Source: Noviluteimonas gilva (GTDB lineage Bacteria > Pseudomonadota > Gammaproteobacteria > Xanthomonadales > Xanthomonadaceae). From it: a stretch of 64,000 nt of DNA. The stretch spans positions 492,464-556,463 of the forward strand of contig NZ_WOXT01000001.1 in NCBI RefSeq assembly GCF_009740395.1. Reading direction: 5' to 3'. Shown here one piece after another: positions 24,066 through 34,416 of this stretch. The position numbers were made by a program, and so were the translations under genes. Position 1 is the first letter of the stretch, and the number at the start of each line of letters is the position of its first letter. A model generated the notes under the pieces. It saw nothing but the letters and a program-made list of their open reading frames with translations, had not been told where the DNA came from and did no database searches.

Positions 24066-25805
24066 TTGGAGCACCTGCACGCCATCGACCTGCGCCTGCT
24101 CTTCGGCGCGCTTCTCATCCTGCTGGGCATCGCCTCGTCGCTGCTCGCGCGTCGCTTTGGCGCTCCCTTGCTCCTCGTGTTCCTGTTGCTCGGCGTCGTG
24201 CTGGGCGAAGACGGCCCGGGCGGCATTCGGTATTCGGACCTGGGCTTCACGTATTTCGTCGGCGCGCTCGCGCTTGCGGTGATCCTGTTCGACGGTGGCT
24301 TGCGCACGCGCGCGGCGCAGGTGCGCGGCGCCGTCCTGCCGTCGGTCGTGCTCGCGACGGCCGGCGTCGTCATCACCGCCGCGCTCACCGCGGTGGCGGC
24401 GGTGTATCTGCTGGACCTGCCATGGCTGGAAGCCTCGCTGCTCGGCGTCGTCGTGTCGTCGACCGACGCGGCCGCGGTGTTCTTCCTGTTGCGCGCAGGC
24501 GGCCTGCATCTGGAACGCCGCGTCAATGCGACGCTCGAAGTCGAGTCGGGCAGCAACGATCCGATGGCGATCTTCCTCACGCTCGCGATGACGACCTGGA
24601 TCGCCGGCACAGGCACGCACGATCCGTGGATGCTCGCGCTGCAACTGGGCTGGGCGATCGGCGCGGGTCTCGTTGCGGGTTATCTCGGCGGGCGTTTGAT
24701 GGTGTGGACGCTCAACACCTTCGAACTTCCACCGGGGCTGCATCCCTGGCTCGCGCTCTCCGGCGCGGTCGCGTTGTTCTCGGTGACCAACCTCGTCGGC
24801 GGCAGCGGTTACCTCGCGGTGTATCTGGCGGGCATCGTCGTCGCGAACCGCCCCATGCGCGCGCGCAGCGAAGTGCTCTCCGTGCAGGATGCGGCGACGT
24901 GGTTCGCGCAGTTGGTGATGTTCCTGCTGCTCGGCTTGCTCGTCACGCCGCACAACCTGCTCAAGTTGTTGTGGCCCGCGCTCGGTGTCGCGGCGTTCCT
25001 GATGTTCGTCGCGCGACCCGCGGCAGTGATCGCGTGCCTCGCGCCGTTCGGTTATCGCCGACAGGAGATCGCCTTCATCTCGTGGACGGGCTTGCGCGGC
25101 GCGGTCGGCATCTTCCTCGCGTCGATCCCGCTGCTCGCGGGCCTGCCGAATGCGACGGTCTATTTCAACGTCGCGTTCGTCGTCGTGTTCGTCTCGCTGG
25201 TCGTGCAAGGTTGGTCGCTCGGGCGCGCCGCGCACCTGTTCGAAGTCGCAGTGCCACGCGCGGACCCGAACACGCGTCGCATCCAACTCGACCTCCCCGG
25301 CCAGCTCGAATACGACATGGTCGGCTACCGCATCGCCGCGGGCAGCGCGGTGTTGCGCGGCGCCGCCCTGCCTGGCCGCGTGCGCCTGGCGATGATCGTG
25401 CGCGAAGGCCGCGTGCTGCTGCCCGACGAAGCCGGCGCGTGGCTCGCGAACGATTACGCGTACGTGCTCGCGCCGACCGGCCAGGCACCGCGCCTGGATT
25501 GGCTGTTCGCCGAAGGCAGCATGGCGCGCGTGGCCGAGCAGGATCTGTTCGGCAGCTTCACCTTGCCCGGCGATGCGCCGCTCGGCGAGATCGCGTCGTT
25601 CTATGGCCTGCAGATTCCGGCGCGCTTCAACCACGCGACCGCGGCGCAGTTGTTCGATGAGCGATTCGATGAGCAGCCGCAGGTCGGCGATCGGCTCGCG
25701 CTCGGGAAAGCGGTTTTGGTCGTGCGGTCGTTGAAGGACGAGCGCGTGGCGCAGGTGGGGTTGAAGTTTGCGGGGGTGGGGGAGCGGCTACTCGGCGGGC
25801 GGTGA
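24066..25805 (+). CDS. cvrA: Potassium/proton antiporter, CvrA/NhaP2-like
   Basis: The 579-residue protein has about 12 membrane helices of the CPA1 family (residues 1 to about 390) with DGGLRTR, VVSSTDAAAVF, ESGSNDPMA with the conserved Asp and acidic residues, and TGLRGAVGIFLA, followed by a soluble C-terminus with a TrkA-C/RCK-like segment and a CorC-HlyC-type end, as in NhaP2/CvrA. These proteins exchange K+ (or Na+) for protons. The start is a TTG at 24066: AAGGAG lies five bases upstream, no ATG fits, and the sequence LEHLHAIDLRLLFGALL leads straight into helix 1. It is divergent from nrdA. Confidence 0.88.
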   Translation: MEHLHAIDLRLLFGALLILLGIASSLLARRFGAPLLLVFLLLGVVLGEDGPGGIRYSDLGFTYFVGALALAVILFDGGLRTRAAQVRGAVLPSVVLATAGVVITAALTAVAAVYLLDLPWLEASLLGVVVSSTDAAAVFFLLRAGGLHLERRVNATLEVESGSNDPMAIFLTLAMTTWIAGTGTHDPWMLALQLGWAIGAGLVAGYLGGRLMVWTLNTFELPPGLHPWLALSGAVALFSVTNLVGGSGYLAVYLAGIVVANRPMRARSEVLSVQDAATWFAQLVMFLLLGLLVTPHNLLKLLWPALGVAAFLMFVARPAAVIACLAPFGYRRQEIAFISWTGLRGAVGIFLASIPLLAGLPNATVYFNVAFVVVFVSLVVQGWSLGRAAHLFEVAVPRADPNTRRIQLDLPGQLEYDMVGYRIAAGSAVLRGAALPGRVRLAMIVREGRVLLPDEAGAWLANDYAYVLAPTGQAPRLDWLFAEGSMARVAEQDLFGSFTLPGDAPLGEIASFYGLQIPARFNHATAAQLFDERFDEQPQVGDRLALGKAVLVVRSLKDERVAQVGLKFAGVGERLLGGR

Positions 25806-26972
25806 CTTGCGCGGCCAGGCTTTGCGGTTCGGATCGAATTCCGACGTCACCATCTCATCGGATCGAATCCCAAAGCCACACACCGCCAACGGGCCTTCGA
25901 CGAAATGGGTGAGGCCGAAGGCCTGTTCGAGGTCGACTTCGTTGATCGCGGCCGTGATGTAAGCGCCGAGGCCAAGTTCGATCGCGCTGAGGAACAGCGT
26001 CTGCGACAAATGTCCGATGTCGAGGATCGTCACCCGGTAGGCCTTCGGGTGGTTGCGGTACTTCCAGAAGTTGCGTTCGAACCGCGGCGCCAACGCCACG
26101 AGGACGTGCGCATCGGCGAACCACTGCTGCCCGCCAACCGCATAGAACGCGAGCTTCGCCAGATCGTCGACGGGCGGCAGCGGTTGCAGCGCGTGGTCGC
26201 CGGGGCGGTAGTGATACAGGCCCGGTGCGAGGCCTTCGACGTTCTGCACGATCAGATACGCCTCGGTCGGGTGCATCGCGCCACCGGACGGGCTCGTGCG
26301 CTTGATGACTTCGAAGTCGTCGGCGGCCTGTACTTGCCCGCGCGCGCCGAACACGCGCTCGAGTACGTTCGCGAACTGCGCGCGAGGCAATGCGCGCGTG
26401 GTGTCGAAGTTGCGGCAGGTACTGCGCAAGTCGAGGAGGTCGTCGAAGCCCGTGTACGCGGCGCGTTCGAGCACGATGCGATCTTCCGACGCGCCGCGAT
26501 CCAGGAACGTCGGCGGCGGCACGCCATAGGCATTGCGCAAACCCAGCGGCGAATAGAGGCCGGCCTCCTGCACTTCCGCCGCCGCGTCGATGCCTGCCCA
26601 TCGCGAGGCCGCATGGCTCACCGACGACAGGCCATACCACTGCACGTCGCGAAACCGCGTGTCGGCGTGGTGATTGGACGCGTGTTGCGCGTCGTCGCAG
26701 ACGATGAGGCCAAGCGCCACCAACGCGGCGATGCACGCCGCGCCATGCGCCTGTTCGAGCGCATCGAAGTCCACCCATGCCGTCGCGCCCAGCGCGCCGG
26801 CGACCATCGCCTGTTGCGCGTCGATCGCCACGGGTTCCGACAGATGCGGCGCGTGCGCGAACCAATGCACCTGGTTCACCACGCCGGTGCCGCCGCCCAG
26901 TAGATCGTCCAGTTCGAAATGGGCGACTTCCCGCGGCTCCAGCCACAACACCGCACAACGCCTTGCCTTCAT
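25788..26972 (-). CDS. SagB/ThcOx-type flavin dehydrogenase, putative peptide maturation dehydrogenase
   Basis: The 394-residue protein has an N-terminal region of about 175 residues, containing a helical segment with ACIAALVALGLI, and a C-terminal nitroreductase-fold domain (about residues 181-370). The latter has LRSTCRNFD, the SGGAMHPTEAY motif (229-239) and GHLSQTLFLSAIELGLGAY (320-338), typical of the FMN-dependent SagB/ThcOx family. SagB proteins oxidise azolines to azoles in modified peptides such as streptolysin S. I recall a xanthomonad subgroup named putative peptide maturation dehydrogenase that travels with the precursor family seen next door. It is divergent from the precursor gene across 154 bp. 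No YcaO or other cyclodehydratase is present in the window, so the reaction is unknown. The ATG at 26972 is preceded by a G-rich SD-like stretch. Confidence 0.85.
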   Translation of the reverse strand: MKARRCAVLWLEPREVAHFELDDLLGGGTGVVNQVHWFAHAPHLSEPVAIDAQQAMVAGALGATAWVDFDALEQAHGAACIAALVALGLIVCDDAQHASNHHADTRFRDVQWYGLSSVSHAASRWAGIDAAAEVQEAGLYSPLGLRNAYGVPPPTFLDRGASEDRIVLERAAYTGFDDLLDLRSTCRNFDTTRALPRAQFANVLERVFGARGQVQAADDFEVIKRTSPSGGAMHPTEAYLIVQNVEGLAPGLYHYRPGDHALQPLPPVDDLAKLAFYAVGGQQWFADAHVLVALAPRFERNFWKYRNHPKAYRVTILDIGHLSQTLFLSAIELGLGAYITAAINEVDLEQAFGLTHFVEGPLAVCGFGIRSDEMVTSEFDPNRKAWPRKSPPAE

Positions 26973-27126
26973 TCTCGTGCCCCCGCTCGGAGCGACGACC
27001 TTAGAGTTGGCGCGCGGGGCCCGCAAGCGCGGATTTGCGTGTCGCCCGGCGCCACGCGCTTGTGACCGGCGTCGAACAACGGTAGCGTCGCGCACCGGGG
27101 GTTTCACTCACACAAGGGGTTTCAAG

Positions 27127-27459
27127 ATGGCGATGAAGAAGGGTGGTCCGACCGAGCCGCTCGACCACAAGGTGGTCAAGACGCTGCTCGACCGACTGTC
27201 GACCGACGATGATTTCCGCGACCTGTTCCAGAACGACGCGCATGCCGCGCTCGTCGAAGCAGGCTGGAAGGCCCCGGCTTCGGCCGCGAGCAGCCTCGCG
27301 CCCGTCGAGGCGTCGAAGATCTCGGGCGGCAGCTGCCTGATGAAGTCCGGTGCCACGCTGGCGTCGAAGGAAGACATCGCCGCCGCGCGTCCGCAGCTCG
27401 AGCGCACGCTGGCCGCGATCGTCAATTTCGACGCACCGCGCGCGCTCTACGCCGACTGA
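27127..27459 (+). CDS. Putative modified-peptide precursor with NHLP-like leader
   Basis: The 110-residue product is not an enzyme. Residues about 14-47 (LLDRLSTDDDFRDLFQND, AHAALVEAGW) match the leader pattern of nitrile-hydratase/Nif11-type precursor peptides: leucines, FR, an Asp before an AL pair and a Gly-Trp. A linker rich in Ala and Ser leads to ISGGSC (Gly67-Gly68, Ser69, Cys70), a possible leader cut after the Gly-Gly, then a 40-residue tail with the only Cys at its start. As I recall, this corresponds to the putative modified peptide family of xanthomonads. The ATG has AAGGGG eight bases upstream. Divergent from a SagB-like dehydrogenase and convergent with the cyclase/TPR gene. Confidence 0.82.
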   Translation: MAMKKGGPTEPLDHKVVKTLLDRLSTDDDFRDLFQNDAHAALVEAGWKAPASAASSLAPVEASKISGGSCLMKSGATLASKEDIAAARPQLERTLAAIVNFDAPRALYAD

Positions 27460-27479
27460 AAATCCGATTCGTTGGATCG

Positions 27480-27512
27480 AAGGGGCGGGATCAGTGCGAT
27501 CCCGCCCCTTTT
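27480..27512. terminator. Bidirectional intrinsic terminator between precursor and cyclase genes
   Basis: A perfect 13-bp stem AAGGGGCGGGATC / GATCCCGCCCCTT with a five-base loop is followed by TTTT on the plus strand, 20 bases after the precursor stop. The same palindrome has AA on its left side, giving a short U-run on the minus strand. The cyclase gene's stop codon lies inside the stem. It should strongly insulate the precursor transcript. Confidence 0.9.
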
Positions 27513-30184
27513 GCTTTCTGGAGATCGCGCGAAAGCGCTTCGGTGCGTTGCGCCAGCGACGGCGGCAGGGTCGCACGCGGCCAGGCGCGCTCGAACTGTT
27601 GCAGCGACTGGGCCGCATCCGCGGAGTTGCCGTCCGCGTTCGACAGCTCGGCCATCTCGAGCAGTGCCACGTTGCTGTCGGCCAGGTTGAGCATCGAGGG
27701 CAGGTAGTCCAGCCCCATTTCGACGTACGCGCGACCGCGATGGGAGGCGATCCAGCGTGCTTCGGCGCGGGCGGTCGTCGTGTCGTCTGCCGCGCGCGCG
27801 GCACGCAACAAGGCGGCGTGTACGGGGAACGAGGTTTCGGCGCGCGCGGCCAACGGCTTGAGTCGCGCGACGGCGAGTGCGGGCTTGTTGGCGAGGCGAT
27901 CGCGCTCGGCCAGCAATGCTTCCCGCATATCCGTCAGCGGCGGATATCCGGCGATGCCGCTGCCGTCGATCTGCGCCAGCGCGCGGTCGAGCACGGACGC
28001 CGAGTCGATTCGCGCGGCCAGATAGCCGACTTGCAGTGAGAGCAGTTGGTCGTACTTCGGGTACGCGGCCTGCAACGCCGCTGCGTTTTCGCGCACGTCG
28101 GCCAGGCGCGCCAGCAAACGCTTCTCCATGGCGTCCTTCGACGCTTTTCCTGCGAGCGCATCGAGCGCATCGCTTCGCAGCGACGCGGCACGCCCTGCAA
28201 CGAGCGGCTCGGCCTTGCCGGCCAGCGTGCTGGCCTCCCGCGCAGCCTCGCCCGCGGCCTTCCAGTCGCCGCGATCGATCGCGAACAGCATCCGGTTGTA
28301 GGGCCGCGCGATATCGTCGGTCGCAACGCCGCTGCCCTTGCGCTGCGTCATCATTTCGTCGACGCGTTTCCATTGCCGCTGCGCGGCGAAGGGATAGATC
28401 TGGTCGAACATGCGCGTGCGGAAGGCGGGGTTGCTGCCTTCTGCGTCCCGGAAGGCGCGGTCCGCGTCGGAATAGTGCTCCAGGCCCAGCTGCAACATGC
28501 CCAGGAGGAACATTGCATGCGCGCGGCGCTCGTACTGCGGGACGGCCGCGGCCTTCGCGTGCGGGATGCTGACGGCGTACTCGTTCGCGTAAAACATCCC
28601 GTTCTGCGCCAGCCCGAACTGCGCCAGGTGCGCGTCGGGATAGGTTTCGATCATCTGGCGCCAGCGTTGCAGGAGCGGCGCGACCGGACCGAACAACGCG
28701 AGGTTTGCGTCCAGCAGGTACTTCTCGCGCGCACTCAGGTGATCGCGGAGTGTGTTCGCGCGCTCCATCGCACTGCGCGTCGCCGGCAGGTCGCCGAACT
28801 TCCCGTGCATCTGGCCGATGGCAAGCCAGCCCAGCGCGAACTTCGGGTCCAGCTCGACGGACTTCTCATAGAACGCCAGCGCATCGCGATCATTGCCTTT
28901 CGCACGATTGCGATTGCCCAGCGCATACGCCTTGAGTGCATCGAGGTTCGGCGTGCTCACTTCCGGAAGCGGCGCCGATGTCTGTTCGATCGAGGCCACC
29001 GCTTCGCCGAGCTTCTCGCGCAATTCGCTGGTGACCTTGTCGATCGACGTGAGCGTCGACCCCGCCCCCACCCCATCGAACGACTCGGCATACACCGTCG
29101 TCTGCGTATGCGGATCGATCACCTCGGCGCTCACGCGCACGCGGCCGCCGACTTCGGCGACGGTCGGCAGGATCACCGCGCGTGCGCCGTCGCGGATCGC
29201 GATTTCACTGGCGGTCTCGCGGTCGAGCGTAGTCGCGGGGCCACGTTTCATCAGCGCGAGCGTGTCCCTGACCTTGAGGTCGCTCAGCACGTTGACGTAA
29301 CGCGATTGCTCCAGGCTGATGCGGAAGGCCTGTTCGAGCGATTCATCGAGCACCGGTTGACCGGTGAGATTGCGCAGATCACCGACGACCACCCAATCGC
29401 GTTCGTTGAACGCAATTGCGGGCGTCGGGCGCGCCAGGAACCACGCGCCCGTGGCGAGGCCCGCGACGAGGAAGAGTTCCGCGGCGACCGCCGTCGGGCG
29501 ACGCCACACGGGAATGTCGCGCCACGCCTTGCCGCCGTTCTGTTTCGGCGCGCGCAGCGGTGCGAATCCCGGTTCGCCGACTTCGAAGACTTCCTGGCCA
29601 TCGGGCACGCCTTTGAATCGCCAGCGGCCGTGCGATTTCCAGATGAGGTGTTCGCTACGATCGCCGAGTTCGCGCGCAGCACGACGTGCGAGCGGTTCTG
29701 CAGTCGCAGACAACAGGATTTGACCCGGGCGCGCGAGCGTCATCAGGCGTCCCGCGAGCGGTTTTGCGAGGCCTTCGACTTCCAGCGGTTTCGCACCCGC
29801 TTGCACCGCGGCTTCGCTGTTCTGCCACGTCAGCACTTCGCCGACATGCAAACCCGCGCGCGCTTGCAGCAGGAGTTTGCGATCACGCACCTCGGGGCGA
29901 TCGCCGAGTTCGCGCAGTCCGCGGGTGTAATCGAGTGCGAAACCGAGACCATCGACCGGGCGTTCGAACAACAACAACAAGCCGTCGCTGCGATCGATCA
30001 GGCGACCGCGCCAGCGTTGCTGCAAATCGAGGACGAGTCGATCGTGTGCGCGGAACAACTCCGCGGCCGGTTTGTCGCCGAGGCGTTCGACCAGCAACGT
30101 GGAGTCGCACAGGTCGGTCAAAAGCAGGGTGCGGACCTGCGGGCTGCTCGCCGGATCGAAGCCGGCTTGCGCGAAGTCATTCAT
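27491..30184 (-). CDS. Nucleotide-cyclase/TPR protein, putative peptide modification system cyclase
   Basis: The 897-residue protein has three parts. Residues about 15-200 form a class III adenylyl/guanylyl cyclase-like catalytic domain with LLTDLCDST (Asp24) and DRSDG (Asp67) at metal-ligand positions, plus LLLQARAGLHVGEV. One membrane helix follows (about 225-250), then an FlgO/TolB-like alpha-beta domain (about 260-390) with a GARAVILPTV segment, then a long TPR-like helical region to the end. As I recall, this matches a family named putative peptide modification system cyclase that accompanies the precursor family next door. Whether it makes cAMP, cGMP or acts otherwise is not known. The ATG has AAGGA upstream. 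It lies 23 bp after a CNB-GGDEF gene and is convergent with the precursor gene. Confidence 0.85.
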   Translation of the reverse strand: MNDFAQAGFDPASSPQVRTLLLTDLCDSTLLVERLGDKPAAELFRAHDRLVLDLQQRWRGRLIDRSDGLLLLFERPVDGLGFALDYTRGLRELGDRPEVRDRKLLLQARAGLHVGEVLTWQNSEAAVQAGAKPLEVEGLAKPLAGRLMTLARPGQILLSATAEPLARRAARELGDRSEHLIWKSHGRWRFKGVPDGQEVFEVGEPGFAPLRAPKQNGGKAWRDIPVWRRPTAVAAELFLVAGLATGAWFLARPTPAIAFNERDWVVVGDLRNLTGQPVLDESLEQAFRISLEQSRYVNVLSDLKVRDTLALMKRGPATTLDRETASEIAIRDGARAVILPTVAEVGGRVRVSAEVIDPHTQTTVYAESFDGVGAGSTLTSIDKVTSELREKLGEAVASIEQTSAPLPEVSTPNLDALKAYALGNRNRAKGNDRDALAFYEKSVELDPKFALGWLAIGQMHGKFGDLPATRSAMERANTLRDHLSAREKYLLDANLALFGPVAPLLQRWRQMIETYPDAHLAQFGLAQNGMFYANEYAVSIPHAKAAAVPQYERRAHAMFLLGMLQLGLEHYSDADRAFRDAEGSNPAFRTRMFDQIYPFAAQRQWKRVDEMMTQRKGSGVATDDIARPYNRMLFAIDRGDWKAAGEAAREASTLAGKAEPLVAGRAASLRSDALDALAGKASKDAMEKRLLARLADVRENAAALQAAYPKYDQLLSLQVGYLAARIDSASVLDRALAQIDGSGIAGYPPLTDMREALLAERDRLANKPALAVARLKPLAARAETSFPVHAALLRAARAADDTTTARAEARWIASHRGRAYVEMGLDYLPSMLNLADSNVALLEMAELSNADGNSADAAQSLQQFERAWPRATLPPSLAQRTEALSRDLQKAKGAGSH

Positions 30185-30207
30185 GCACGATCCTTTGCAT
30201 CACGCGC

Positions 30208-31233
30208 CTAGGCCGGCGCGAGCGCGTCGTCCTGCCATTCCACACGGTTGCCACCAAGTCGCTTGGCGCGATAGAGCGCGGCATCGGCGAGGGCGTACCA
30301 GTCGTCCCATTCGGTGTCGGGAGTGACCAGGCAGGCGCCGACGCTGAGCGTGGCGATCTGCGGCGGCGAAGGCTGCATCTCGTGCAGGGCATGTGCGGTG
30401 GTCGTGATGAACTCGGCGACGCGCATGACGTCGTCGCGATGCTCGCCCTTGATCATCAGGCAGAACTCGTCGCCGCCCAGGCGGCAGGCGATGTCGTCCG
30501 GGCCGGCGGCCGAGCGCAGGATGTTGGCGACGCCCTGCAGCACGCGATCGCCGACGAGGTGCCCGTGATCGTCGTTGATGTTCTTGAAGCGGTCGCAGTC
30601 GATCAGCAGCAGGCCGCGGCCGGGCTGTTCATCGGTGCGACGGCGCTGTTGCAGATGCAGGTGGAAGCCGCGGCGGTTCGCAAGGCCGGTGAGTTCATCC
30701 GTTCGGGTGAGTTCTTCGGTCTGCGTGAGGCGGTGCGTGGTCGCGCGCAGCGTGTCGAGTGCGGTCTGCAGGTCGAGGTTGCGGCGGCGCAGGCGGCCGA
30801 TGAGGCTTTGTTCGTTCAGCACCACGCGCATGATGGCGCGGCGCAGGAAGTGGGCGAGCAGGCGCGGGTCGCGTTCGACCAGCGTTTCGAATTCCTGCTG
30901 GCGCAATTCGACCAGCACGCCCGGGCTCGACACGGTGGCGTCCGCACTGCGTGCGTGGTCGCCGATCAGCAGGCCGAGCTCGCCGAAGAACTCGCGCGCG
31001 CCGAGGCGCTTGGCGACGAGGTCGTCGCCGAAGTCGAGATCCACCGAACCTTGCGAGATGACGTACATCGTCGTGCCGAGGTCACCACGGCGAAACAATC
31101 GCTCGCCAGGCTCGACGCGACGCTGCTGCCCGATTTGCGCGAACAGCGCGTACTCCTCCGCAGTCAGGGACGCGGCGGGTTCGAGAACTTCGATGTCAGC
31201 TCGGCGCCGACGAGGCGCACGGTCGCGATTCAC
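30208..31233 (-). CDS. Cyclic-nucleotide-binding domain / GGDEF diguanylate cyclase
   Basis: The 341-residue protein joins a cyclic-nucleotide-binding domain (about residues 17-125; phosphate cassette FGELGLLIGDHARSA) through a coiled linker to a GGDEF domain (about 175-335). The active-site GGDEF is intact, so it should make cyclic di-GMP from GTP. The RxxD inhibitory site five residues before GGDEF is absent, so product feedback is unlikely. The GTG at 31233, with GGGGGA eight bases upstream, is preferred; an ATG at 31287 would add 18 residues. It reads directly into the cyclase/TPR gene 23 bp away, suggesting that one protein's product (a cyclic nucleotide) could be the other's ligand. That link is inference. 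Confidence 0.85.
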   Translation of the reverse strand: MNRDRAPRRRRADIEVLEPAASLTAEEYALFAQIGQQRRVEPGERLFRRGDLGTTMYVISQGSVDLDFGDDLVAKRLGAREFFGELGLLIGDHARSADATVSSPGVLVELRQQEFETLVERDPRLLAHFLRRAIMRVVLNEQSLIGRLRRRNLDLQTALDTLRATTHRLTQTEELTRTDELTGLANRRGFHLHLQQRRRTDEQPGRGLLLIDCDRFKNINDDHGHLVGDRVLQGVANILRSAAGPDDIACRLGGDEFCLMIKGEHRDDVMRVAEFITTTAHALHEMQPSPPQIATLSVGACLVTPDTEWDDWYALADAALYRAKRLGGNRVEWQDDALAPA

Positions 31234-31381: not shown

Positions 31382-32689
<1,308 letters not shown>

Positions 32690-32719
32690 CGTGGTGCTCC
32701 TTGTCGTGTGACCCGACGG

Positions 32720-34351
32720 TCAGTCGATCCGTGCGTAGGCCGGAAGGGTGAGGAAGTCTTCGAGCGTGTCTGCGTGGGTGAGGGTTTCGAGCAACTCGAT
32801 CGCCTCGTTGATGCGGGCGCCGCCGGGAAGCTGCATGCGGTCGGCGAACTTGCTGGGCAGGCCGATCAGGGCGCGTTCGAGCAGCGCGAAATCGATCGGC
32901 GAGCCGTCGTCCAGGTGCAGCGGCGGGTCGCTGTGCAGCCACTGCCAGAGTTGGGAGCGGGAAATCTCGGCCGTCGCGGCGTCTTCCATCAGCCAGTGGA
33001 TCGGCACGCAGCCGTTGCCGTCGAGCCAGGCGGCGAGATAGCGCACGCAGACTTCGACGTTGTTTTCGAAGCCGGCGCGGCTGATCGTGCCGAGGGATGG
33101 CTTGAGCAGCGCGTCGCGCAACTCGGCATCGGATTTCGCGCGCACGTCGTTGCGCAGCACGAATTGTTGGTGCGCGCCGAGCATCCAGGTATCGAACACG
33201 TCGCGCGCCAGCGGAATCAGCGCAGGATGCGCGACCCACGTGCCGTCGTGGCCGGCGCCGACTTCGCGCACCTTGTCGGCGCGCACGCGTTCCATCGCGC
33301 GGGCGTTGGCGGCTTCGTCGCCGGCGATCGGCACCTGCGCGGCCATGCCGCCCATCGCGTGCGCGCCGCGGCGGTGGCAGGTGTGGATGAGGAGTTCGGA
33401 GTAAATCTTGAGGAAGGGCTGCGTCATCGTGACCTGTGCGCGCTCGGGCAGGACGCGGTCGCGATGGCGGCGGAAGGTCTTCAGGTAGGAAAAGATGTAA
33501 TCCCAGCGGCCGCAGTTGAGCCCGACGATGCGCGTGCGCAGTGCGTGCAGGATCTCGTCCATCTCGAACACCGCCGGCAGCGTTTCGATCAGCACCGTGA
33601 CCTTCATCTGGCCTTCGGGCAGGCCGAGCGCGCATTCGATGTGCGCGAGCACGTCTTCCCACAGCGCGGCTTCTTCCATCGACTGCAACTTCGGCAGGTA
33701 GAAATACGGGCCGCGGTCCATCGCCGCGAGCGCGCGGGCGTTGTGGAAGGCGAACAGGCCGAGGTCGAAGAGCGATGCGGAGATCGGTTGACCATCGACG
33801 CGCAGGTGTTTTTCATCCAGATGCCAGCCGCGCGGGCGGACGATCAGCACCGCTTGTTCGGCCCAGGGCTTGAGCACGTAGTGCTTGCTGCCGTCCGGCG
33901 CCATCCAGTCGAGCGTGCCGGCCACCGCCTTGCCCAGCGCGCGCTGGCCGGTGAGCAGGTTGTCCCAGGTGGGCGAGGTCGAATCCTCGAAATCGGCCAT
34001 GTAGCAGTTCGCGCCGGAGTTCAGCGCGTTGATGACCATCTTCGGATCGGTGGGGCCGGTGATCTCGACGCGGCGGTCGAGCAGCGCCTTCGGAAGCTCG
34101 GCCACGCGCCAGTCGCCGGAACGGAGGTGCGCGGTGTCGGTGCGGAAGTCGGGGAGCGCGCCGGCGTCGAAGGCGGCCTGGCGGACGCGGCGGGCGGCGA
34201 GGCGTTCCTGCCGCCGAGGTTCGAAGGTGCGATGCAACTGGGTGAGGAAGGCGAGCGCGGCGGGGGTGAGGAGGTGTTCCTGCCCCGCGATCGAGCGGGT
34301 CGTCGTGACCCCCGGCGAGAGGCTGTCCTGGTCCTGCAGTACTGCCGACAT
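32720..34351 (-). CDS. aceB: Malate synthase A
   Basis: AceB condenses glyoxylate with acetyl-CoA to malate, completing the glyoxylate shunt with AceA. The 543-residue length and motifs (DFEDSTSPTWDN, RPRGWHLDEKH, LPKLQSMEEA, GRWDYIFSYLK) match the A form, rather than the longer malate synthase G. The ATG at 34351 has AAGGA eight bases upstream; a start 20 codons earlier would lack a ribosome site. It is divergent from a LysR regulator gene. Confidence 0.95.
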   Translation of the reverse strand: MSAVLQDQDSLSPGVTTTRSIAGQEHLLTPAALAFLTQLHRTFEPRRQERLAARRVRQAAFDAGALPDFRTDTAHLRSGDWRVAELPKALLDRRVEITGPTDPKMVINALNSGANCYMADFEDSTSPTWDNLLTGQRALGKAVAGTLDWMAPDGSKHYVLKPWAEQAVLIVRPRGWHLDEKHLRVDGQPISASLFDLGLFAFHNARALAAMDRGPYFYLPKLQSMEEAALWEDVLAHIECALGLPEGQMKVTVLIETLPAVFEMDEILHALRTRIVGLNCGRWDYIFSYLKTFRRHRDRVLPERAQVTMTQPFLKIYSELLIHTCHRRGAHAMGGMAAQVPIAGDEAANARAMERVRADKVREVGAGHDGTWVAHPALIPLARDVFDTWMLGAHQQFVLRNDVRAKSDAELRDALLKPSLGTISRAGFENNVEVCVRYLAAWLDGNGCVPIHWLMEDAATAEISRSQLWQWLHSDPPLHLDDGSPIDFALLERALIGLPSKFADRMQLPGGARINEAIELLETLTHADTLEDFLTLPAYARID

Positions 34352-34416
34352 GGTCGAGTCCTTGCGAATGCCTGAGGAGCCGACCGTACGAGCCAGTACT
34401 GTATTGGACAAAACAG

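What the first reader, a model, noticed from the sequence alone, without database searches (positions are those of the whole stretch)
25788..31233. Putative modified-peptide cassette joined to nucleotide second-messenger genes
A SagB/ThcOx-type flavin dehydrogenase (25788-26972) is divergent from a 110-residue peptide gene (27127-27459) with an NHLP-like leader. The peptide gene is convergent with an 897-residue protein (27491-30184) combining a class III nucleotide cyclase domain, a membrane helix and a TPR-like region, which sits directly downstream of a CNB-GGDEF protein (30208-31233). From memory, the first three resemble xanthomonad families named only as putative peptide maturation dehydrogenase, putative modified peptide and putative peptide modification system cyclase; no product or chemistry is known to me. 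The mix of a precursor, an oxidoreductase and a nucleotide cyclase with no YcaO, radical SAM or lanthionine enzyme is unusual. Either the TPR/cyclase protein is itself a maturation enzyme, or the peptide is a signal whose production is linked to cyclic-nucleotide levels.
Basis: partly seen in the sequence, partly recalled or inferred. Interest (0 to 1): 0.9.

Follow-up and report, generated by a model that had tools for sequence, protein, structure and literature searches.

The report
Swappable peptide and receptor cyclase
Next to a known bacterial cyclic-GMP switch sits a small, probably modified peptide, and the peptide, its likely modifying enzyme and the outer half of the cyclase change together between related species, which suggests that the peptide is the unknown signal that the cyclase senses.

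Summary
The four genes are real and correctly placed. Three match NCBI families TIGR04511 (SagB-like dehydrogenase), TIGR04509 (NHLP-related peptide) and TIGR04510 ("peptide modification system cyclase"); the fourth is CNB-GGDEF. The cyclase/CNB-GGDEF pair corresponds to XC_0250/XC_0249 of Xanthomonas campestris, a published cGMP-to-c-di-GMP pathway (EMBO J 2013) with no known input; its main text mentions neither peptide nor dehydrogenase. The order CNB-GGDEF > cyclase > < peptide, dehydrogenase holds in nearly all loci examined. New here: in five of seven genera the CNB-GGDEF and cyclase domains are 90-95% identical (medians) while the cyclase's predicted periplasmic TPR half falls to 24-61%, together with the peptide and, often, the dehydrogenase. 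In two genera these form clear discrete types that move as a block: two Xanthomonas-like genomes share an identical cyclase domain and 92-95% identical flanking DNA around a 3.3 kb stretch without any DNA match. This resembles the "pherotypes" of peptide quorum sensing (ComQXPA). Best reading: a modified peptide is the ligand of a receptor guanylate cyclase. Not shown: export, chemistry, binding. Physical linkage of the swapped genes is the main caveat, and one genus does not show the coupling.

The parts
25788..26972 (-). SagB/McbC-type FMN dehydrogenase (TIGR04511), 394 aa; invariant Lys304-Tyr305 at about 26058-26063
   Evidence: K304 and Y305 in 136 of 136 aligned rows; AlphaFold model pLDDT 92.3, nearest folds McbC, ThcOx, BmdC and plain FMN nitroreductases
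27127..27459 (+). NHLP-related precursor peptide (TIGR04509), 110 aa: conserved leader residues 12-46 (27160-27264), poorly conserved linker 47-69, second conserved stretch 70-96, type-specific tail from residue 97 (27415-27456)
27491..30184 (-). Receptor-like class III guanylate cyclase (TIGR04510; XC_0250 orthologue), 897 aa
   Evidence: residues that XC_0250 needs are conserved; cyclase fold plus helical repeats in the model
29540..30145 (-). Cytoplasmic cyclase domain, residues 14-215; within-genus median identity 72-95%, 90% or more in six of seven genera
29429..29497 (-). Single membrane helix, about residues 230-252; mean net charge +3.5 on the N side and -0.8 on the C side, so N-terminus in
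   Evidence: a hydropathy peak here in 83 of 83 proteins, another peak elsewhere in 2 of 83
27620..28984 (-). Hypervariable TPR ectodomain, residues 401-855, predicted periplasmic
   Evidence: within-genus medians 34-70% (residues 401-600) and 24-60% (601-855) beside cyclase domains at 72-95%; helical repeats in the model
26963..28534 (.). Divergent island of the window against its congener L034: blastn finds 85% identical DNA up to inside the TPR region and 83% from the dehydrogenase start on, nothing between
   Evidence: coordinates converted from the flipped excerpt
30208..31233 (-). CNB-GGDEF diguanylate cyclase, XC_0249 orthologue, with the cGMP-binding residues
   Evidence: F73, E90, L91, H98, E146 (XC_0249 numbering) in 129 of 129 rows, N145 in 117 of 129, GGDEF in 128 of 129

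Best explanation
The four genes are one signalling unit. The dehydrogenase binds the leader of the NHLP-like peptide and oxidises it; the peptide (probably its C-terminal tail) reaches the periplasm, of the same or of a neighbouring cell, and is bound by the TPR ectodomain of a single-pass receptor guanylate cyclase; the cyclase makes cGMP, which binds the CNB domain of the adjacent CNB-GGDEF protein and raises c-di-GMP, setting biofilm and related traits. Ligand, enzyme and receptor ectodomain exist in distinct types (pherotypes) that are exchanged as a block, while the cytoplasmic relay stays constant. Shown by others in the Xanthomonas orthologues: cGMP synthesis, cGMP binding, c-di-GMP activation. 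Shown here: gene association, topology prediction, residue conservation, co-varying types and block exchange. Inferred: oxidation of the peptide, its export, its binding to the ectodomain, that binding controls cyclase activity, and that types do not cross-talk.
For: Gene order CNB-GGDEF > cyclase > < peptide with dehydrogenase beside it: of 138 non-redundant loci, the peptide is convergent with the cyclase in 133 of 136 with room, a dehydrogenase lies within 4 kb in 130 of 132, CNB-GGDEF lies directly upstream in 125 of 135 by a strict rule, and in three more with a few bases of overlap or a broken cyclase frame. Relay residues conserved. One membrane helix with positive-inside charges. Within genera CNB and cyclase domain are conserved but ectodomain, peptide and often dehydrogenase are not. 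Ectodomain-peptide identity correlation, controlling for CNB and cyclase identity: 0.98, 0.98, 0.94, 0.90, 0.88 in g7, g18, g16, g45, g30, permutation p 0.0005 each, and 0.75 in g1 (p 0.024). L044/L144: 92.4% DNA identity over 4.4 kb, then no match for about 3.35 kb, then 95.3% over 4.3 kb; cyclase domain 100%, ectodomain 32%, peptide 42%, dehydrogenase 47%. On the CNB+cyclase DNA tree none of six multi-genome types is one clade, each rejected by the AU test, p 0.018 to 4.6e-117. Similar types recur outside the genus (four clusters span genera at a 45% cut, none at 55%). The tail is 84-91% identical within a type and 19-27% between types in g7 and g18. Ectodomain goes with the tail more than with the leader, dehydrogenase with the leader more than with the tail.
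Against: Ectodomain, peptide and dehydrogenase are contiguous, so a block exchange would couple them without any binding; the tail/leader contrast has the same confound, as the tail lies next to the ectodomain gene end and the leader next to the dehydrogenase. Genus g51 (5 genomes) shows no ectodomain-peptide coupling (r 0.06, partial -0.35) but strong peptide-dehydrogenase coupling (0.96). 23 of 392 close within-genus pairs are discordant between ectodomain and peptide. In g16 and g30 the ectodomain also follows the cyclase domain (partial 0.40 and 0.61). On the tree the types are scattered but not at random: 14 changes against 17.0 in shuffles, as low in 1 of 200. Export is unexplained: I ran no signal-peptide predictor, the GG motif is not a family feature, and the genome's two C39 peptidase matches are small stand-alone ORFs, not peptidase-transporters. 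Substrate and product of the dehydrogenase are unknown. One genome (G054, locus L074) keeps cyclase and CNB-GGDEF without peptide or dehydrogenase. In Xcc the cyclase domain alone restored biofilm in the mutant, so the ectodomain is not needed for activity when expressed so.
Confidence: 0.5

Rival explanations
1. Linkage only: one of the three genes is under diversifying selection (for instance the dehydrogenase/peptide product as an antimicrobial or surface factor) and the ectodomain hitch-hikes, without ligand-receptor contact.
For: The three parts are contiguous; recombination tracts cover all or most of them; ectodomain-dehydrogenase coupling is nearly as strong in two genera (g7 0.88, g18 0.97); in g51 the peptide goes with the dehydrogenase and not with the ectodomain.
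Against: The left edge of the variable part lies, depending on the genus, between the membrane helix (about residue 230) and the first repeats (about 410), never inside the cyclase domain in the averaged profiles. In the window against L034 the block stops at the dehydrogenase start, yet ectodomain and peptide are both in it. Peptide-ectodomain coupling exceeds peptide-dehydrogenase coupling in g7, g16, g45, g30 and g1, is equal in g18 and reversed in g51. The neighbouring segment 262-395 of the same protein couples less to the TPR part (0.32) than the peptide tail does (0.60).
Confidence: 0.27
2. Output model: the cGMP/c-di-GMP relay controls production of the peptide, and the TPR ectodomain binds the peptide during maturation or export (scaffold or immunity).
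For: Shared locus; TPR domains often bind peptides (recalled); co-variation of ectodomain and peptide also fits a scaffold or export partner.
Against: The single membrane helix puts the TPR part on the opposite side from the cyclase domain and, presumably, from the cytoplasmic FMN enzyme. Published XC_0250 and XC_0249 mutants affect biofilm and many genes elsewhere, more like a sensory relay.
Confidence: 0.15
3. The small protein is not a modified peptide but a folded partner subunit of the dehydrogenase or the cyclase.
For: Two conserved stretches that look helical, no conserved Cys/Ser/Thr-rich core, no conserved cleavage motif.
Against: Passes the NHLP-related RiPP model; conserved leader, free linker and type-specific tail; multiple copies: eight matches over 50 bits in locus L071, nine TIGR04509 matches in that genome, five near-identical copies in L059; dehydrogenase fold nearest to peptide and carrier-bound azoline oxidases, with plain nitroreductases close behind.
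Confidence: 0.15

Closest known systems
XC_0250/XC_0249 cGMP to c-di-GMP pathway of Xanthomonas campestris pv. campestris (An et al. 2013, PMC3770947)
   Same: Residues named for XC_0250 and XC_0249 fit the L043 and L044 proteins in the published numbering from a Met; the L043 cyclase read from that Met is 886 aa (887-residue frame less one), the length given for XC_0250. The L043 CNB domain matches PDB 5h5o over all 129 residues; the tool names no species for 5h5o, and the paper's own entry 4KG1 was not listed. Window proteins carry the same residues.
   Different: The main text leaves the TPR part uncharacterised, names no input and has no occurrence of dehydrogenase, RiPP, XC_0251, XC_0252, periplasm or transmembrane; figures and supplements not seen.
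NCBIfam TIGR04509/TIGR04510/TIGR04511 (putative peptide modification system)
   Same: All three window proteins score far over the cut-offs.
   Different: The names imply that the cyclase serves peptide modification; the listing says nothing of receptor, topology, types or cGMP.
ComQXPA quorum sensing of Bacillus (PMC4408185, passages read; abstract start)
   Same: comQXP highly polymorphic and incongruent with the strain tree (gyrA); groups communicate within but not between groups. That only the sensor part of ComP varies is recalled.
   Different: Isoprenyl transferase and histidine kinase there; flavin dehydrogenase and guanylate cyclase here; no sequence relation is claimed; activation specificity untested here.
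McbC, ThcOx, BmdC azoline oxidases
   Different: They act on heterocycles made by another enzyme; no YcaO match anywhere in this genome.
Animal receptor guanylate cyclases (natriuretic peptide receptors; recalled)
   Same: Peptide outside, one membrane helix, cyclase inside, cGMP as messenger (if the model holds).
   Different: Helical repeats outside here; no kinship of ectodomains claimed.

Membership tests
TIGR04509/04510/04511 cassette | Each protein over the curated cut-off and genes adjacent | tested here: met
   (71.1, 984 and 486 bits); adjacency
XC_0250/XC_0249 pathway | Cyclase residues reported as needed in XC_0250 (D41, D71, L73, A150, L157, A161) | tested here: met
   By the spacing these are window D37, D67, L69, A151, L158, A162; D37 in 83, D67 in 84, A151 in 84 and A162 in 81 of 85 rows, L69 in 61 and L158 in 71
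XC_0250/XC_0249 pathway | cGMP-contact residues of the CNB domain | tested here: met
   F73, E90, H98, E146 in 129 of 129 rows, N145 in 117; the window has all
XC_0250/XC_0249 pathway | Makes cGMP and raises c-di-GMP in this organism | not testable with these tools
   needs enzymology
Azole-forming RiPP system (LAP/TOMM) | SagB-type dehydrogenase | tested here: met
Azole-forming RiPP system (LAP/TOMM) | YcaO cyclodehydratase | tested here: not met
   PF02624: 0 matches in the own genome; control rings in 5 of 14
NHLP/Nif11-type exported RiPP | NHLP-clan leader | tested here: met
   TIGR04509 71.1 bits over its cut-off; NF038399 28.9 bits is under its cut-off of 40
NHLP/Nif11-type exported RiPP | Conserved GG cleavage site | tested here: not met
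   The window peptide has GG at 67-68, but these columns are G in 9 and 15 of 78 filled rows, of 96
NHLP/Nif11-type exported RiPP | C39 peptidase fused to an ABC transporter in the genome | tested here: not met
   Two PF03412 matches, in ORFs of 161 and 231 aa
Pherotype system like ComQXPA | Enzyme, precursor and receptor sensor part polymorphic together while signalling parts are conserved | tested here: met
   in six of seven genera; not in g51; discordant pairs; the dehydrogenase is outside the island in the window against L034
Pherotype system like ComQXPA | Peptide activates only the receptor of its own type | not testable with these tools
   needs conditioned-medium or synthetic peptide assays
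ComQXPA (by descent) | ComQ isoprenyl transferase and ComP histidine kinase | tested here: not met
   dehydrogenase and cyclase instead
Pycsar anti-phage system | CNB protein with a TIR or membrane effector domain | tested here: not met
   PADLOC matches lie only in the CNB part (residues 30-136), the other half is GGDEF
RRNPP peptide receptors | TPR fold like Rap/PlcR/NprR | tested here: inconclusive
   none in the 50 rows shown, which are filled by cyclases and eukaryotic repeat proteins

The most novel reading that the evidence does not exclude
Lysobacteraceae have a peptide-hormone-like system of a kind I know from no bacterium: an oxidised NHLP peptide is the pheromone of a single-pass receptor guanylate cyclase whose TPR ectodomain, peptide and modifying enzyme form exchangeable pherotypes, some older than the genera that carry them, feeding a constant cGMP-to-c-di-GMP relay that controls biofilm and, in plant pathogens, virulence.
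Probability: 0.42. Interest if true: 0.93.

Novelty: new variant of a known kind. Interest (0 to 1): 0.86.

Why it matters
cGMP signalling in Xanthomonas has a known relay and known phenotypes, but a 2019 review still calls the TPR part of the cyclase a domain of uncharacterised function (PMC8042644, passages). This locus supplies a concrete candidate ligand, its likely modifying enzyme and the receptor surface, and the natural types give ready-made specificity tests. If right, it would be a peptide-gated receptor guanylate cyclase in bacteria, a signalling role for a SagB-family RiPP without YcaO, and a Gram-negative counterpart of Bacillus pherotypes that joins peptide communication to c-di-GMP.

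Tried and rejected
Conserved exporter in the neighbourhood: none recognised; the neighbours that recur are aceB/aceA on the CNB side and a comM-like gene on the other, all named by eye from sequence, not by a family search, and many smaller or wrong-frame clusters were not identified. PCAT-type export: not supported. Anti-phage Pycsar: rejected. Azole RiPP in the strict sense: no YcaO. GG-cleaved core: the motif is not conserved. Cyclase as maturation enzyme: disfavoured, see rivals. RRNPP structural kinship: none seen among the rows shown. Tail/leader partial correlations look like RiPP logic but are confounded by gene geometry, so I do not lean on them. The N-terminal domain of the dehydrogenase was not searched on its own. 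Radical SAM and lanthionine enzymes were not searched for.

Limits of the counts: loci were chosen by me for strong cyclase matches (one or two per genus, seven within-genus sets) plus the 34 loci, so they are not a random sample. One search left out near-identical ectodomains (over 99%); one search also left out rearranged or broken loci (L059, L066, L071, L073, L076, L077, L120, L126, L127) and kept 115 of 121. One search used 26 of 27 rows of g7 and g18 (L128, whose ectodomain equals that of L129, left out); 11 of its 23 inner branches are weakly supported. Types were defined at 55% ectodomain identity before the tree was built. Each genome stands for one species, so variation inside a species was not seen. 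The literature lists were capped (20 of 84 and 12 of 222 papers shown). XC_0250 itself was not fetched; its identity rests on numbering, length, adjacency and the 5h5o match.
Full report
Observation. The ORFs are as described. NCBIfam names the three proteins SagB_rel_DH_2 (TIGR04511), NHLP-related RiPP peptide (TIGR04509) and putative peptide modification system cyclase (TIGR04510), all well over the cut-offs; the fourth is CNB plus GGDEF. Pfam sees no cyclase domain in the 897-aa protein at E 0.01. Among 297 genomes of the family the three models are over cut-off in 182, 185 and 184; peptide and strong cyclase matches disagree in 5 of 297. In a sample of the whole phylum TIGR04509 is over its cut-off in 8 of 398 genomes, all in the window's order.

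A published pathway. PMC3770947 (whole main text read) shows that XC_0250, a class III cyclase with TPR repeats, makes cGMP, and that XC_0249, a CNB-GGDEF protein, binds cGMP and then makes more c-di-GMP; both affect biofilm and virulence. The residue numbers given for both proteins fit, from a Met, the L043 and L044 proteins; read from that Met the L043 cyclase is 886 aa long, as XC_0250 is; and the L043 CNB domain matches PDB 5h5o over its whole 129 residues (species of 5h5o not shown by the tool). I infer that genus code g18 is Xanthomonas or very near, and that XC_0250 is a TIGR04510 protein. The window proteins carry the same residues. Searches for XC_0250, XC_0249, neighbouring locus tags, the TIGR names, and combinations of NHLP, SagB, cGMP and pherotype (lists of 56 and 81 capped) showed no paper that joins the cGMP pathway to the peptide; the library lacks most subscription papers.

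Architecture. In 138 non-redundant loci the usual order is CNB-GGDEF > cyclase > < peptide, then dehydrogenase. Peptide convergent with the cyclase in 133 of 136 with room; dehydrogenase within 4 kb in 130 of 132; CNB-GGDEF directly upstream in 125 of 135, plus L185 and L186 (overlap of a few bases) and L076 (cyclase frame in pieces). Without CNB-GGDEF: L056, L059, L071, L073, L077, L125, L126. In 7 of 130 loci the first dehydrogenase is on the peptide's strand.

The new result. In seven genera I compared congeners. Medians for CNB, cyclase domain, ectodomain 401-600, ectodomain 601-855, peptide, dehydrogenase: g7 93, 95, 38, 25, 37, 55; g18 93, 94, 44, 24, 39, 49; g16 92, 95, 61, 40, 49, 70; g45 90, 92, 40, 32, 39, 75; the window's genus g1 93, 93, 45, 35, 65, 62; g30 72, 72, 34, 24, 35, 47; g51 71, 90, 70, 60, 35, 52. 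In g7 and g18 the values are clearly bimodal (matrices); elsewhere more graded. At 55% ectodomain identity there are 6 types among 15 genomes in g7, 4 of 12 in g18, 3 of 17 in g16, 9 of 12 in g45, 10 of 17 in g30, 3 of 5 in g1, 1 of 5 in g51; no type spans genera at that cut, four clusters do at 45%. Controlling for CNB and cyclase identity, ectodomain and peptide correlate at 0.98, 0.98, 0.94, 0.90 and 0.88 in g7, g18, g16, g45 and g30 (p 0.0005 each) and 0.75 in g1 (p 0.024); g51 shows none (-0.35) though peptide and dehydrogenase go together there (0.96). Ectodomain against cyclase domain: about 0 in g7 and g18, 0.26 in g45, 0.09 in g1, 0.02 in g51, but 0.40 in g16 and 0.61 in g30. At a 60% cut 369 of 392 close pairs are concordant (86 both high, 283 both low); 16 are ectodomain-low/peptide-high (12 in g45, 4 in g1) and 7 the reverse, 5 of them in g51.

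Block exchange. L044 and L144 have identical cyclase domains; their DNA is 92.4% identical over 4366 bp up to some 50 codons past the membrane helix, without any blastn match for about 3.35 kb, and 95.3% identical over 4282 bp from about 166 bases after the matched end of the dehydrogenase. Point mutation is a poor explanation for such an island; recombination is a good one. In the window's genus the island against L034 is shorter, from the TPR region to the dehydrogenase start, and against L183 the peptide itself still aligns at 71%. A CNB+cyclase DNA tree of 26 genomes separates members of every multi-genome type; holding any of the six together is rejected (AU p 1.4e-5, 4.6e-117, 1.2e-73, 0.018, 1.7e-4, 1.8e-4), though types are more clustered than in shuffles (14 changes against 17.0). 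A type with a short peptide tail occurs in L053 (more distant), L066, L080, L081, L082 and L121: L080 is 97% identical to its congeners L036 and L078 in the cyclase domain but 16-31% in the TPR region, where it is 42-51% identical to L082 and L121, outside its genus.

Reading. Co-variation of a precursor, its enzyme and only the outer half of a receptor, with a constant inner relay, is what I recall of ComQXPA pherotypes; the passages read confirm polymorphic comQXP, incongruent with gyrA, and group-wise specificity (PMC4408185). The simplest mechanism is that the peptide is the ligand of the ectodomain. Against over-reading: the parts are neighbours, so linkage alone would couple them; export is unexplained; nothing shows the modification. 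The contrast (115 loci: ectodomain with tail 0.55 beyond leader, with leader 0.38 beyond tail; dehydrogenase with leader 0.48, with tail 0.36) fits leader-for-enzyme and tail-for-receptor, but the gene geometry predicts the same.

Verdict. Ordinary in its parts, since each is named or published, but the join is new to me and makes an open question, what switches on cGMP synthesis here, directly testable.

Noticed in passing
window 31382-34411 (-): Isocitrate lyase and malate synthase (aceA, aceB, named by eye) lie directly upstream of CNB-GGDEF on the same strand; ORF clusters that include this region recur in 66-67 of 83 loci, so the signalling unit usually sits beside the glyoxylate shunt and might be co-transcribed with it.
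   Followed up: partly
L059, L071, L073, L065, L066: Loci with several peptide genes: five near-identical copies in L059, eight over 50 bits in L071, four in L065; L071, L073 and L066 also have more than one dehydrogenase, L073 two cyclases.
   Followed up: no
L126: Three cyclase genes and two peptide genes with one dehydrogenase and no CNB-GGDEF in the fetched stretch: receptor amplification without the usual relay nearby.
   Followed up: no
L074: Cyclase and CNB-GGDEF kept without peptide or dehydrogenase: its ectodomain would be a test of relaxed constraint.
   Followed up: no
window 30208-31233, before GGDEF: The inhibitory RxxD site known from other diguanylate cyclases (motif recalled) seems absent upstream of GGDEF (sequence printed).
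   Followed up: no
window 27491-30184, residues D24 and R146: By my reading of class III motifs (recalled), the first metal aspartate is D24 and the transition-state arginine R146, in 84 and 83 of 85 rows, whereas PMC3770947 assigns these roles to other positions.
   Followed up: no
L141: The dehydrogenase match is only a fragment (98 bits) beside full cyclase and peptide matches.
   Followed up: no
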